A stretch of 64,000 nucleotides of DNA from Nautilus pompilius (taxonomy: Eukaryota > Mollusca > Cephalopoda > Nautilida > Nautilidae). Numbering within the stretch: position 1 is the first letter of the stretch; each line of letters opens with the position of its first letter. The stretch spans positions 3,443,001 through 3,507,000 of the forward strand of contig JACATO010000317.1 of assembly GCA_018389105.1 (NCBI GenBank). Reading direction: 5' to 3'. The translations under genes and the position numbers were made by a program. The notes under the pieces are model-generated. The model did no database searches. It was not told the origin of the DNA and saw nothing but the letters and a program-made list of their open reading frames with translations. Positions 53,201-59,200 of this stretch are shown here, in pieces.

Positions 53201-56200
53201 CTTGTAGAGTACATCATGGAAATCTTCAGGAACTATTAAATAATAAAAAAAAAAATTAATTTTTCAGTAACTGCAGGAGTGGAAATTAGTAGTGCTAAAT
53301 TAATCTGCCTGGTCATTTTCTCATACTTTAAGTCCAGAACAGAACTTACCAGTGCTGGGCTGGCATAGTGATACAATCTTCTCTGGAGCACCCTTTGAAT
53401 AGGCATCCATGTGGTTGCTTCCTAGGGTCCTTACAACCACACTCATCCTTTGTAATGATGAGGTAAAGGTAAACTGACGGACTATCCCTACCTCAAATGG
53501 AGTCTGAAAGATTTTTATTTGTAAGTACAGTATGACAAAATATGGGAATTTAAATAAGCACAATTAGCCACATTTAAAACAAACAAATTATTCCATAACA
53601 TTCTTTGTCTCTTTTTCAAGTAAATTAATCAAATTATTTATATTCATGGTAGATGGAATGTGGTGTACACTGCAGCACAATAATAAGACGACAAAATTTC
53701 AGAAATAGTTTTTTGTTTGATCCACTGATGATGACTATTCAGTTTCCATTGGCAGTCCCTTCCATACATCAATGATACTATTACTAAAAGCAAAATCTCC
53801 TAATGAAGTCTGAGCTATAAAAGTTTAAAATCATATCCCCTTAGGATCTGAAAATTAACCAATTTTTCAATCTTTAATAATTTCAAAAGATTCAATAAAA
53901 TCCTCTTTCAAGCATATATAACACAAAAGGAGTAATTTTAAATGCTTTAGACATTTTTCAAGAAGTATTTGAAAAACTATTCTATTTTTAAGCCTGCAAA
54001 GTAGACTAGGCTTTAAAAAAACACATACACAAATATGAGTATCACAGTTCACCCTTAAAAGGTAAGGATTTTGATAATCTTAATATTTTCCTTTCTACAA
54101 CAAAAATAAAATCAAACTTCAATACTCATATTTTAAAAAAGATTTCATGTTGAATTATTTGACAATGTTATTATCTCCCCTTGCAACACAAATAATACAA
54201 ATGATTATTCATTTAGAACATAGTTATTCACCAATCAAGAGGTTTATGAAATGGAGTTAAATATTTGGTATATGAGGTCTGTCGAAAAAGTATCCGAGCT
54301 TAGGCTGGGAAAAAAAATTATGTACTTGGTGGGGTTCAATTGCTAATCCCCTTTGAAGTAGGCCTCTTCTGCCTCCACACACTTAGCCCAGCGATCCTTC
54401 CACTGTTCGAAGCACCTCTGGAATGCTTCTTCTGAAATGGCTCTCAGCTCCGCTGTTGTATTCTGCATGATGTCCTCTAGGCTATCAAAGTGGGAGCCTT
54501 TCAGTGGCATCTTCATTTTTGGGCACAACCAGAAGTCAGAAGGAGCCATGTCTGGAGACTAGGGAACCTGGCGAATGAGCGAAATGCCCTTTCTTTGCCA
54601 AGAAACCTTGGATCAGCTGCGACAAATGAGCCGGGGCGTTGTCATGATGCAGCTGCCAGTTTTGTGAGGCCAACATATCTGGTCTCTTGCACAGAATTGC
54701 ATCACAAAGTCAGAGGACTTCCTGGTAGTAGTCCTTTGTAACTGTTTGTCCTTCTGGTGCGTATTCGTGATGCACAACGCCTCGGTAGTCAAAGAAAACA
54801 GTCAGCATCACCTTGATTTTGCTCCGGACCTGAGGTGCTTTTTTGGGGCTTGGCGACGTTGGGTGCTTCCACTGTGACTGAGCTTTGGTTTCCGGGTTGT
54901 ATCCATACACCCACATCTCATCTCCTGGTGCAAGCCCAAATCCTCCCTTAAAATTGCATGTGCAGAATCTTTACTGATCCCAACCTCATCACCAATTTCC
55001 TGCACCATCAAATGACGATCCTTGATTATCAAGGTCCACACTCTCTCAATAACTGCATTGCGGCTTGTTGACAGCCTCCCGGAACGCTGGCCACTCTCCA
55101 CCGATGTGCAGCCATCTTTGAACCTGTTGTACCATTCTTTTATTTAGGTAACACCCATGGCATTGTTACCAAAAGCCTGTTGAATTTTGCGAATTGTTTC
55201 CGCTTGGATATCTCAAGCTTTTGGCAAAACTTGATGCAAGATCGTTGCTCCACACATTCTGTCATCATGGGCAAAATGAAAATGCGACGAATAAGTAGTA
55301 CAGCACCTCAAGTGACTGACGCATCCAGCAAGCCTGCCAAAAGCCATGCATGCAGCTCCATTATGCACACTTTTGCCTCCTTAATGTCATTACTTCCAAC
55401 AGGAAAAAATAAAGTCGGATACTTTTTCGACAGACCTCGTACTATCTGTATCTGGAAATAAGTTGCAGAGAAGAGTCTAGCTGAAAGAGAATATTCACAA
55501 TGCAGTTTACTCTGAACTTTGCATAAATACTAAAATTTTACATGTCAGCAACAAAGAGTAAATTAGCATATTTTATAGTTCTTGCCATTTTATACTTTAA
55601 AAATTATTACACCTGTTCAAACAGTTATCTCCCCTTAAACTTTTAAAGAAACAAAAAAATTGCAAAGATAACTGTTGCATGAAAATGAACTAGTCTTTAT
55701 CAGTGACTTACATAGTGAGGTATGCAATCTAAGAATATTTAAATTTTGGTTTTGTTTTAAAATAAAATATAATTCCCAAAGCCAGTGTAAGCCAAAAAAA
55801 TCTCTCTAGCTGCAGTCATCTAACATGCAGATATAACAAGAATTCCTTTTTTTGAAATGGTGTGTGGAAATAAACATGCATGCATGTTCACAAACAATCA
55901 CCTGGCCAACTCCGTCTGAAGCATACATATCTTTGGTACAAGGTCTTACAACTGTGGGTGTAAACATGTCGAATTTACTTGTGTCTTGGCCGGGTTCTTG
56001 CATTACCTGAAAGACAGACAAAAGTTTCAGTTCCTTGTTTATTCACAGTTTACTGATTTCATGCATCATGCCAATGCTTTAAGTAAAATGAAAAGCTGCA
56101 GAGATTCACCAATACATTCTGTTTGAATGTTTAGTAAAAAACACATAAGCCAGCCAAACAACAAACTAAAGTATCCCACCAACTGCATATTGTCAGACAT

Positions 56201-59200
56201 AACAATGAGGTAAATTTGACATACAAGTGAGTTTTATTTAAACAACCTTACAACAACTATTATTAGTACAATGATTACAAGATAGTACATTAAATGTGCA
56301 TCAAGACACCCAAATCAATTTTGTGTATGAAGTGCAAAAATGTCCAATCAAGAATTACACAAGCTGAATAATGTGAGACTTCCTCCTCTAGCATCAATCA
56401 ACTATTGTTATAATCATCATGTCATGCATCCTACTAGAAGCTATAAGAGTACGTTTGATGGATGGCATTCCAACCTCGAATCAATAGCTATCCAAGTTTC
56501 TCCAACATCTGGAGCTATTAAGGCAGATAATTTAGGTACTATTCCATTTCATCCTACATATACTCCATAGAGGAAACCACTAGTTAGGATGATTTTGACA
56601 ATGCTTTGTTGCAGTAATTCTGAATGATCCTGTTGCTATAAAAAGGCAGTGACAAGCTTCAGGATAGCATCCCCATAGAATATAGTTAGATTTTGAGCCA
56701 AGATGACAAGCCAGTTTCTATGTGGCATTGTGATGTCTCCACAAATTAGATTTTTTTCCAGGACACATGGATCACACTCGCAGCCATAGTTCCTTTCAAG
56801 TGCAAATCTGAACTAGCCACTGAACTGATGGTCCTCCAATGAATACCCTGATACTGTAAATGTTTCTGACTCCATTGAAGCCAAGCAGCATAATATTGCT
56901 AGGTAAGACCACGTTGCTTTGCAAGTTACTGGGAGCATAGTCCATATTCACATGAGCAAATCTAAATGTCCTTCTGTTAATAGGCCTTAGTCTGGAAAGA
57001 GCCCCCATTACCATTGCTGCAGAAAGGAAGAAATTGGTTGCATGTGGATATTTTGGACATAGCCAATTTGTCAAGACATCACAATGTGGTCACCCAGTAC
57101 ACGGCTGATCTTAAACTTCATGTGTTTGTTGGTATCAAGTCCAGAGTGTCCTTTTTTTCTATGAACTCCAACTGCTTTTAAACATCTCCTGACTCCAACA
57201 TCCCTATGCTACTTTCCAATAAATGCAGCAAGACTACCTCTTTGGCAATGTCAAAACAACTATTTTTTTTTCTTCTAATAGACATTTGAAAAATCTTAAT
57301 GAAGCAATAATCACACTTTCATTGACTGCAAGCTTATCCCACGTAGTACTCAACACATCTGCATGTTGCTAGAGCTCGGAGTACACAAACACCTGTATTC
57401 AGGTACAAATGTCATAATCAGCCAATCTAAGTTTCACACTTTTGATGTCAGCCAGACTAAACAGCTTTTTTCCACAATTAAATAAGTACACACACACACA
57501 TGTAAGACACTTAGTGACTATGTAAGACATTTGACAACAATGGTTCTTATACTGGGTTCATTCTAGGGTTTGCTAATGAAATATAACAGTGTCAAAGTCA
57601 CCAAGAATTACTAAATTTACTTCACTAGATATCACAGTTACTATGGCTGGCAGGTTTAACTGCTCTATGTCTGTCTCTTGGATGCTTGTCATTGAAAAAA
57701 TATTTTAATTTAGTATATATTAAAAATGTATTAACACATACAAAATGTGTAAACCATAATTTGTCCTCATTGGTTCAATTAGTTACTAAACTATTTTGCC
57801 TCACAAATACAAATAAAAAATGGCATTCTGCAAATTAGCTCTACAGTTTTTTTTTTATAATTTTATCATAATCAAAATTTTATTGACACAAATTTATGGT
57901 GTAACAAAAAAGATATAACAGAAACAGAAATTAAATACCAAATTTAGACCATTAGTGACTGATTACCCAATTCAGGATTTCACGGTCATCAAAGAACTGT
58001 TTATTGTTCAGATTGTCTCAGCCACACACAACAGAATGGAATTAAAGTTGACTGGTGTCAGAAGTCAGTGTTTAATGTATTTTGTGAGGCAAGGAAAGCA
58101 ATGCAATCTAGACAATGAAAGCAGTCAAGTTCACAGTTTCTTCTGCAAGCCCTTTAAAAAGAAATCATTAGTATACTGACAGATCTTCCAAATAATTTTT
58201 TTAAAAATTATTATTTTATGCAGAGAAAATGTAAAGGAAGAAAAATAATCTGTCATCAGCAGCAAAGAAACTGTGGACTTTGAACAAAAAGCAAAGAGCC
58301 TACCACCACCTGTCTAGGCATGGAAGTGTTGGGAGACTGAACTAAACGATAGCATCGTGGTCGCACAACTGTTGGCATGAGGCAGTCAAAGCGTGTGTTG
58401 TCAGTGCCCGGTTCTTCCATTTCCTGCACACAGAGAGAGAGAGAGAGAAATCTGCACATCCCAAATGGAAAAGACACAAACAATTGATTCCCACCAACAT
58501 GCTACTCAAAGGTCTGGGAAGAAGCTACGTTCTACAGAATTTATTGCTAATTACCTGCCTATAAAGACTACTACAGAAAGAGGGGCAACCGGTGATAAAT
58601 GGTGGTCTTCAAATGATCACTATTTCCAAGGGTATTTAATAACTTCATTGCCTGCTAATAGTTAACATTTACACCTCTTTTAAAAATTTGTGGTGCAGAT
58701 TATTTTATTTAAATTTAAATTTCTTAATGAAAGTTTTTAACAAATTAAGTTATCTTCTTTTGGAAATTTTATTTAAAAAGATAGAATTACACATCATGCA
58801 CAAGATTACATCATCATATATGGAAATGCTATCTTCATCTTCAATGACAATGGTGGATAAAAGCATGCATTAAAATAATGTGTTGTGCAGTTTTCTAAAA
58901 ATATGACATGAACAGAGGATGAGAGAGATCTTACTAAAAGGTGGAACTCGCAGTAACCTTGCACAAAATGCAAAATAAACCAGATGCAACTTTTATAGCA
59001 GTCACAAGAATTAAATCCTTTAAGGTTAGTATTAATATTGTGATACCCAACATGCATTGTTAGTTAATGAAACAGCATACAACAGTGAATGTTTGCTTTC
59101 AAGTTAGCAAAATTTTTTAAAATTAGGCAACTTGAATTACCATAAATCTAAAGTTAAATTTTCCTGCAATGGTAGTTATCATGCACAAGAGAAAAACCAG

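What the first reader, a model, noticed from the sequence alone, without database searches (positions are those of the whole stretch)
55902..58423. Duplicated phase-0 exon pair in a polyamine-transporting ATPase: candidate mutually exclusive splicing
Two consecutive exons (58310-58423 and 55902-56006) encode the same segment, EP-G-D-x-x-x-(K/R)-F-D ... PTVVRP, which vertebrate ATP13A2/3 have once. Both are phase 0 at each end, as are the neighbouring junctions, so copy 1, copy 2 or both keep the frame. The copies share the conserved core but differ in their C-terminal halves ([16 protein letters not shown] versus [13 protein letters not shown]). That region lies in the nucleotide-binding domain next to the regulatory insert, so a swap could change catalysis or partners. 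I know of no described mutually exclusive exon in this family, from memory only.
Basis: partly seen in the sequence, partly recalled or inferred. Interest (0 to 1): 0.75.

Follow-up and report, generated by a model that had tools for sequence, protein, structure and literature searches.

The report
Duplicated swappable exon in polyamine pump
A polyamine-pump gene in an animal genome carries two old, intact and apparently interchangeable versions of one small exon, most likely used one at a time; this is a well-known kind of splicing switch, new to me in this pump family, and no RNA data were at hand to prove the switch.

Summary
Copy 1 (58310-58423, minus) and copy 2 (55902-56006, minus) are homologous, stop-free, phase 0-0 exons of a P5B (ATP13A2/3-like) ATPase. 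No other pair was found among 26 exons examined, and a whole-genome search found this segment in three places: the two copies, and once in a paralogous gene. The likeness exceeds chance (0 of 1,729 other splice-bounded open candidates pass the published 15% criterion). Synonymous sites are near saturation (dS about 1.6) while the protein is conserved (dN/dS about 0.24), so the duplication is old and both copies look constrained. Against solved P5B pumps, copy 1 alone and copy 2 alone fit equally (70.4 and 70.3 bits); both together or neither fit worse (59.5, 54.6). Alternative, probably mutually exclusive, use is the best reading, but unproven: there were no RNA data and no related genome, and double inclusion keeps the frame. 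Frame/NMD and U12 mechanisms are excluded, steric ones unlikely. A speculative mechanism remains: joining copy 1 to copy 2 makes a donor (CAG|GTAATG) that could eject copy 2. New member of a known kind.

The parts
62924..63018 (-). upstream exon (N-1), ends ...[10 protein letters not shown], phase 0 donor TGG|gtaagt
   Evidence: donor score above 28 of 40, itself one of the 40
58424..62923 (-). intron A (4,500 nt), GT-AG
58432..58450 (-). CU-repeat polypyrimidine tract of copy 1's acceptor; a possible PTB-type site (binding preference recalled, not tested)
58310..58423 (-). copy 1 exon, [38 protein letters not shown], phase 0-0, 114 nt; weaker splice sites
56007..58309 (-). intron B (2,303 nt) between the copies; its middle part recurs elsewhere in the genome
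55902..56006 (-). copy 2 exon, [35 protein letters not shown], phase 0-0, 105 nt; strong splice sites; begins GTAATG
56001..56006 (-). first six bases of copy 2 (GTAATG), which would make a donor CAG|GTAATG if copy 1 were joined to copy 2 (hypothesis)
53504..55901 (-). intron C (2,398 nt), GT-AG
53350..53503 (-). downstream exon (N+1), [23 protein letters not shown]..., phase 0 acceptor; Pfam Cation_ATPase
35161..64000 (-). rest of the P5B ATPase gene inside the window; it continues upstream outside the window

Best explanation
An old tandem duplication of one exon in a P5B polyamine-type ATPase gene left two intact exons that encode the same N-domain segment, and a mature mRNA normally takes one of them. 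Shown: homology, intact frames, usable splice sites, a pattern of protein constraint between the copies, single copy in the paralogue, and equal fit of either copy alone to solved P5B pumps. Inferred: that the choice is exclusive and regulated; that copy 2 (stronger splice sites) is the default and copy 1 (weaker donor, CU-tract acceptor) the regulated form; and that the swap keeps a conserved core while exchanging a surface loop, which would tune the pump or its partners rather than its substrate site.
For: Homology beyond chance. The genome search found three places, the third being one exon of a paralogous gene, which has the same phase-0 start and no second copy in the scanned flanking introns. 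dN/dS about 0.24 between copies with near-saturated dS; each copy shares 11 of 22 residues with the paralogue exon, so neither has decayed visibly faster. A neutral copy at distance 0.8 stayed open and this similar in 1 of 20,000 trials. Copy 1 alone 70.4 bits and copy 2 alone 70.3 bits in one stretch against ATP13A2, both together 59.5 in two stretches, neither 54.6. Of the 24 other exons examined none has a credible partner. The published anatomical criteria are met, and in the fly X-chromosome survey only 6 of 1,705 genes had non-exclusive neighbours with these features (PMC3228551, passages and section 14 read). Precedent of a duplicated-exon splice choice in a mollusc: oyster AOX (PMC5589949, passages).
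Against: No transcript or relative was available. Both lengths are multiples of 3, so double inclusion or skipping is not punished by frame. No mechanism that enforces exclusivity is demonstrated. Prediction from anatomy is imperfect: in PMC3228551 26 of 65 predicted internal exons were annotated as exclusive (the authors think this understates), and in PMC5740500 1,399 of a set of 6,541 human candidates were verified (passages). Copy 1's donor is weak (above 8 of 40) and its 3' boundary uncertain. At distances of 0.2-0.3 a neutral copy often stays open and similar (0.41 and 0.16 of trials), so the constraint argument rests on dS from about 14 synonymous sites. Against the three 7FJ chains and the P5A chains the no-copy form scores a little higher than the others (53.3 against 45.8-47.9; 27.0-27.4 against 23.1-23.8), the former because their listed sequence seems to lack the segment.
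Confidence: 0.72

Rival explanations
1. Alternative but not exclusive: each copy is a cassette exon, and some transcripts carry both or neither.
For: All four joinings stay in frame; no enforcing mechanism found.
Against: Both-copy and no-copy forms fit solved ATP13A2 worse (59.5 and 54.6 bits against 70).
Confidence: 0.11
2. Both copies are constitutively included, adding about 35 residues to the N domain.
For: Frame stays open; both copies have usable splice sites.
Against: The match to ATP13A2 breaks into two stretches around an unmatched insert; neither human ATP13A2 nor the fungal P5B shows such an insert; the paralogue has one copy. Non-exclusive homologous neighbours were rare in flies (6 of 1,705 X-chromosome genes, PMC3228551).
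Confidence: 0.08
3. One copy (copy 1 more likely) is a dead or never-used exon.
For: Copy 1 has the weaker acceptor and donor (above 8 of 39 and 8 of 40), a Glu where copy 2, the paralogue and human ATP13A2 have Val after the Trp, and several possible donors; the automatic alignment, on the other hand, used copy 1 and skipped copy 2.
Against: No stop or frameshift in either copy, third codon positions least conserved (16, 15 and 10 of 22 identical), equal identity to the paralogue, equal fit to ATP13A2.
Confidence: 0.08
4. Recent segmental duplication or assembly artefact.
For: None found beyond the tandem arrangement itself.
Against: Copies differ at 9 of 22 core residues with near-saturated synonymous sites; 300-nt intron flanks show no residual similarity (116 of 500 and 297 of 500 shuffles score as well).
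Confidence: 0.01

Closest known systems
Internal clusters of two mutually exclusive homologous exons (as surveyed in PMC3228551 and PMC5740500; passages, and section 14 of the former)
   Same: Neighbouring internal exons, same phase, similar length, homologous peptide, same protein segment
   Different: Exclusivity not observed here; joint inclusion keeps the frame, whereas in a set of human-fly orthologues of PMC5740500 20 (71%) of the genes with validated exclusive exons break the frame on joint inclusion (passage)
Oyster alternative oxidase duplicated exon 10 (PMC5589949, passages)
   Same: Tandem exon duplication in a mollusc; splicing yields two protein versions of the same size
   Different: Terminal exon with its own stop; one variant's mRNA holds both copies; an alternative 3' splice site; RNA evidence exists there
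Animal P5B ATPases ATP13A2-5 and invertebrate P5B (PMC5837089, passages)
   Same: P5 N-terminal domain, DKTGT and GDGAND motifs, matching N-domain segment
   Different: The segment is matched once in solved members; here two versions are encoded. That paper reports a single P5B in most protostomes; in this genome two places carry the P5 N-terminal domain
Recursive-splice exons (PMC6224609, passages)
   Same: Copy 2 starts with GTAATG, so joining it to copy 1 recreates a donor-like site
   Different: No splicing intermediate or lariat evidence; the GT also encodes the Val that the paralogue has

Membership tests
Mutually exclusive exon cluster | neighbouring internal exons flanked by further coding exons | tested here: met
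Mutually exclusive exon cluster | similar length (published limit 20 aa) | tested here: met
   38 and 35 aa; limit from PMC3228551
Mutually exclusive exon cluster | same phase and compatible splice sites | tested here: met
   all phase 0, all GT-AG
Mutually exclusive exon cluster | sequence similarity at least 15% of self score | tested here: met
   29% and 32%; 0 of 1,729 and 0 of 2,039 other candidates reach 15%
Mutually exclusive exon cluster | each transcript holds exactly one of the exons | not testable with these tools
   no RNA data held
P5B ATPase | P5-ATPase N-terminal domain | tested here: met
   PF12409 at C308:3523538-3523714, upstream of the window, 49.9 bits, over cut-off 22.7
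P5B ATPase | catalytic motifs DKTGT, TGD and GDGAND and the P5B core | tested here: met
   read from the spliced translation; best solved relatives are ATP13A2 and fungal P5B
P5B ATPase | polyamine transport | not testable with these tools
   needs an assay
Recursive-splice exon (copy 2) | exon start that rebuilds a competent donor at the exon-exon junction | tested here: inconclusive
   copy 1|copy 2 CAG|GTAATG scores above 18 of 40 donors, N-1|copy 2 above 3 of 40; 2 of the other 42 junctions listed in the two genes come near it
Recursive-splice exon (copy 2) | re-splicing observed | not testable with these tools
   needs lariat or intermediate reads

The most novel reading that the evidence does not exclude
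Exclusivity is enforced by recursive splicing. If copy 1 is joined to copy 2, the junction becomes a donor (CAG|GTAATG) stronger than copy 1's own donor, and the spliceosome uses it to throw copy 2 out. When copy 2 is joined directly to the upstream exon, the junction (TGG|GTAATG) is a poor donor and copy 2 stays. The forbidden double product would thus correct itself, without frame, steric or RNA-structure control, in a polyamine pump whose N domain is thereby switched.
Probability: 0.07. Interest if true: 0.72.

Novelty: new member of a known kind. Interest (0 to 1): 0.42.

Why it matters
It would give a P5B pump a splicing switch inside its catalytic N domain, in a family that vertebrates diversified by gene duplication (ATP13A2-5; PMC5837089, passages). 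It is testable by ordinary RNA sequencing. It also offers a two-exon case in which the usual exclusivity mechanisms (short intron, U12 sites, frame break) do not apply, so the real mechanism would have to be something else.

Tried and rejected
Third copy: none found in the genome search (sensitivity is limited, since the two copies find each other there only at E about 0.1) or among splice-bounded candidates of the 94 kb. Another exon pair in the gene: 26 exons were scanned, the two copies included; of the other 24 one gave a weak, stop-containing match at E 0.009, the rest none at E 0.01. Among 19 exons of the paralogue one gave two weak matches (E 0.007 and 0.009).

Competing RNA helices: the best helix between introns B and C (50-nt windows, 25-nt steps) was -40.8 kcal/mol, against -33.6 to -39.8 for four shuffles of intron C; at finer steps it reached -44.1, for which no shuffle was run. 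I call it marginal and set it aside: the arm in intron C (about 55302-55351) lies near a transposon-like stretch (inferred), and no relative was at hand to test it. It would loop out copy 2, so it is not excluded. Intron A was compared only with that one window of intron C (best -30.5); A-B and A-C were not scanned. Flank similarity as a relic of selector sequences: none in 300 nt.

Steric hindrance or distant branch points: judged unlikely, since intron B is 2,303 nt and copy 2 has an AG 27 nt upstream of its acceptor. U2/U12 incompatibility and NMD of double products: rejected.

Species identification by mitochondrial COX1 was asked twice, never answered, and dropped. Related genomes: the tool states that this genome has no relatives held, and the metagenome cap is zero; the prokaryote and viral collections were not scanned, as they are unlikely to hold animal genes.

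Corrections: one paralogue exon start was off by one base (94913 instead of 94912). In one search that acceptor was dropped from the matrix (39 of 40 kept); that exon was translated out of frame; one search repeats it correctly (identity between the two genes 49.4% over 770 positions instead of 45.6% over 769). Splice-site matrices and exon sets hold the exons I judged confident; the tiny or doubtful exons were left out.
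Full report
What is there. They belong to a P5B ATPase gene that runs from about 35161 in the window to about 80714 in joined coordinates, beyond the window's end. The gene has a P5-type N-terminal domain (PF12409), and its spliced translation shows DKTGT, TGD and GDGAND. Its closest solved relatives by sequence are human ATP13A2 and a fungal P5B.

Exon anatomy. The upstream exon ends TGG|gtaagt at 62924 and the downstream exon starts at 53503; both junctions are phase 0. 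Copy 1 is 114 nt and copy 2 105 nt. Using copy 1, copy 2, both or neither gives 120, 117, 155 or 82 residues of open frame over this stretch.

Is it more than chance? Yes. 13 of the first 22 residues are identical, and none of 20,000 shuffles scores as well. I imitated the published search for mutually exclusive exons (PMC3228551; passages and section 14 read). Of 1,729 other open, AG..GT-bounded, phase-0 candidates of similar length on this strand of the 94 kb, none passes 15% of copy 1's self score (best 4.3%); copy 2 scores 29%. With copy 2 as query, 0 of 2,039 pass (best 3.2%) and copy 1 scores 32%. On the other strand, with copy 1 as query, 0 of 1,380 pass. I scanned 26 exons of the gene, the two copies included; none of the other 24 has a credible partner.

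Where else is the segment? A search of the whole 728-Mb genome finds three places: copy 1, copy 2, and one exon on contig C587. The cross matches are weak at that scale (E 0.09 to 0.95), so a more diverged copy elsewhere could be missed. C587 holds a second P5B gene, 49% identical to this one over 770 aligned positions. There the segment is one exon with the same phase-0 start after the conserved Trp, and no second copy appears in its flanking introns; its 3' end is less certain (the automatic alignment put it at 93967, I put it at 93945, in coordinates of the joined C587 stretch). So the discrete exon is shared by both genes and the doubling is seen in one. PMC5837089 (passages) reports a single P5B in most protostomes, so two P5B genes is itself a small departure.

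Age and selection. Over the 22-codon core, dS between the copies is about 1.6 and dN about 0.38. Each copy against the paralogue exon gives similar values (dS 1.6 and 1.3; dN 0.48 and 0.37), and each shares 11 of 22 residues with it. The duplication is therefore not recent, and its order relative to the gene duplication cannot be resolved. Identity by codon position is 16, 15 and 10 of 22. In simulation, a neutrally evolving copy at distance 0.8 stays open and this similar in 1 of 20,000 trials, before counting indels and splice sites; at distances of 0.2 and 0.3 the share is 0.41 and 0.16. The argument therefore rests on the high synonymous distance, estimated from about 14 sites.

Which joinings make a P5B protein? 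I compared the four forms with all solved chains. Copy 1 alone scores 70.4 bits and copy 2 alone 70.3, each in one stretch against ATP13A2. Both together score 59.5 and break into two stretches around an unmatched insert. Neither scores 54.6. Either copy alone is thus equally acceptable, and single use is what solved P5B pumps show. Two sets of chains go the other way by a little: three human ATP13A2 chains (7FJM, 7FJP, 7FJQ; no-copy 53.3 bits, others 45.8-47.9) and the P5A chains (no-copy 27.0-27.4, single-copy 23.1-23.8, the two-copy form unlisted). In the 7FJ chains the listed sequence appears shorter by about 27 residues in this very segment, judging from match coordinates (8IEK 555-668 against 7FJM 555-641). 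I infer, without having seen the structures, that part of it is a flexible loop left out there. The copies agree in the core (EPG.D...FD...PTVVRP) and differ in the half after it, which fits a loop swap. Human ATP13A2's N domain tilts on ATP binding and contacts the nucleotide (PMC8564547, passages), so an effect on catalysis is possible but not shown.

Splicing signals. Scored with matrices from 40 donors and 39 acceptors of the two genes, copy 2 is a strong exon (acceptor above 32 of 39, donor above 27 of 40) and copy 1 a weaker one (8 of 39 and 8 of 40). Copy 1's acceptor has a CU repeat, which the T-rich matrix may undervalue (inference) and which recalls PTB-regulated exons (recalled, not tested). 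I therefore predict copy 2 as default and copy 1 as the regulated form.

How might exclusivity be enforced? Joint inclusion keeps the frame; intron B is 2,303 nt; the nearest upstream AGs lie 28 and 27 nt before the two acceptors, so branch points are probably near; all sites are GT-AG. That removes frame/NMD and U12 explanations and makes steric ones unlikely. One helix between introns B and C is marginally stronger than four shuffles and would loop out copy 2; I do not rely on it. What remains is control by splicing factors, or the recursive idea: the junction copy 1|copy 2 reads CAG|GTAATG, a donor scoring 8.27 against 5.99 for copy 1's own and 9.23 for copy 2's own, while upstream-exon|copy 2 reads TGG|GTAATG at 4.99 (same order with a recalled generic matrix). 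Against it: the GT encodes a Val that the paralogue also has; the junction exists in this form only if copy 1 uses its first donor, and the generic matrix prefers the one 6 nt on (5.57 against 4.65); similar junction scores occur at 2 of the other 42 junctions listed in the two genes (7.11 against 7.71); and the exon junction complex represses such re-splicing in mammals, though apparently less in flies (PMC6224609, passages). I give it 7%.

Compared with what is known. Tandem duplicated, mutually exclusive exons are a well-described kind. Anatomy alone does not prove them: 26 of 65 predicted internal exons were annotated as exclusive in the fly survey (PMC3228551), and 1,399 of 6,541 human candidates were verified (PMC5740500, passages). 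A duplicated exon with splice choice is known in oyster alternative oxidase (PMC5589949, passages). For P5B ATPases my searches found none in print: ATP13A3 with 'mutually exclusive exons' 0 papers, CG32000 with 'mutually exclusive' 0, and no relevant title among 2, 2 and 12 listed; in PMC5740500 the term ATP13A does not occur in the main text. This covers only the open papers held, and genome annotations of molluscs may already list such isoforms. From memory only, fly Na,K-ATPase alpha has mutually exclusive exons; the passages I saw on that gene (PMC11765297) speak of long and short isoforms and do not show this.

Verdict. A real, old, intact exon pair; alternative single use is the best-supported reading at about 0.72; exclusivity remains to be shown with RNA.

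Noticed in passing
window 42736-44174, minus strand, in an intron of the same gene: Transposase remains in two overlapping frames: DDE_1 (47 bits) and Tc5-type DNA-binding domain (56.6 bits).
   Followed up: partly
window 54710-55143, minus strand, intron C: Open stretches that resemble a mariner-type transposase by recalled motifs; the part scanned, 54808-55143, had no Pfam hit.
   Followed up: partly
window about 56780-57341, minus strand, intron B: Stretch of the intron between the two copies that recurs at 70-82% identity in nine short matches elsewhere in the genome, probably a transposon relic; an open frame there (56796-57089) had no Pfam hit.
   Followed up: partly
contig C587, about 307621-372465 of G000: A second P5B ATPase gene, 49% identical, with one copy of the exon in question; protostomes are reported mostly to have one P5B gene.
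   Followed up: partly
window 58304-58310, minus strand: Copy 1's donor region reads CAG gtg gtg gta ggc: three in-frame GT donors 3 nt apart that could add one or two Val residues.
   Followed up: partly
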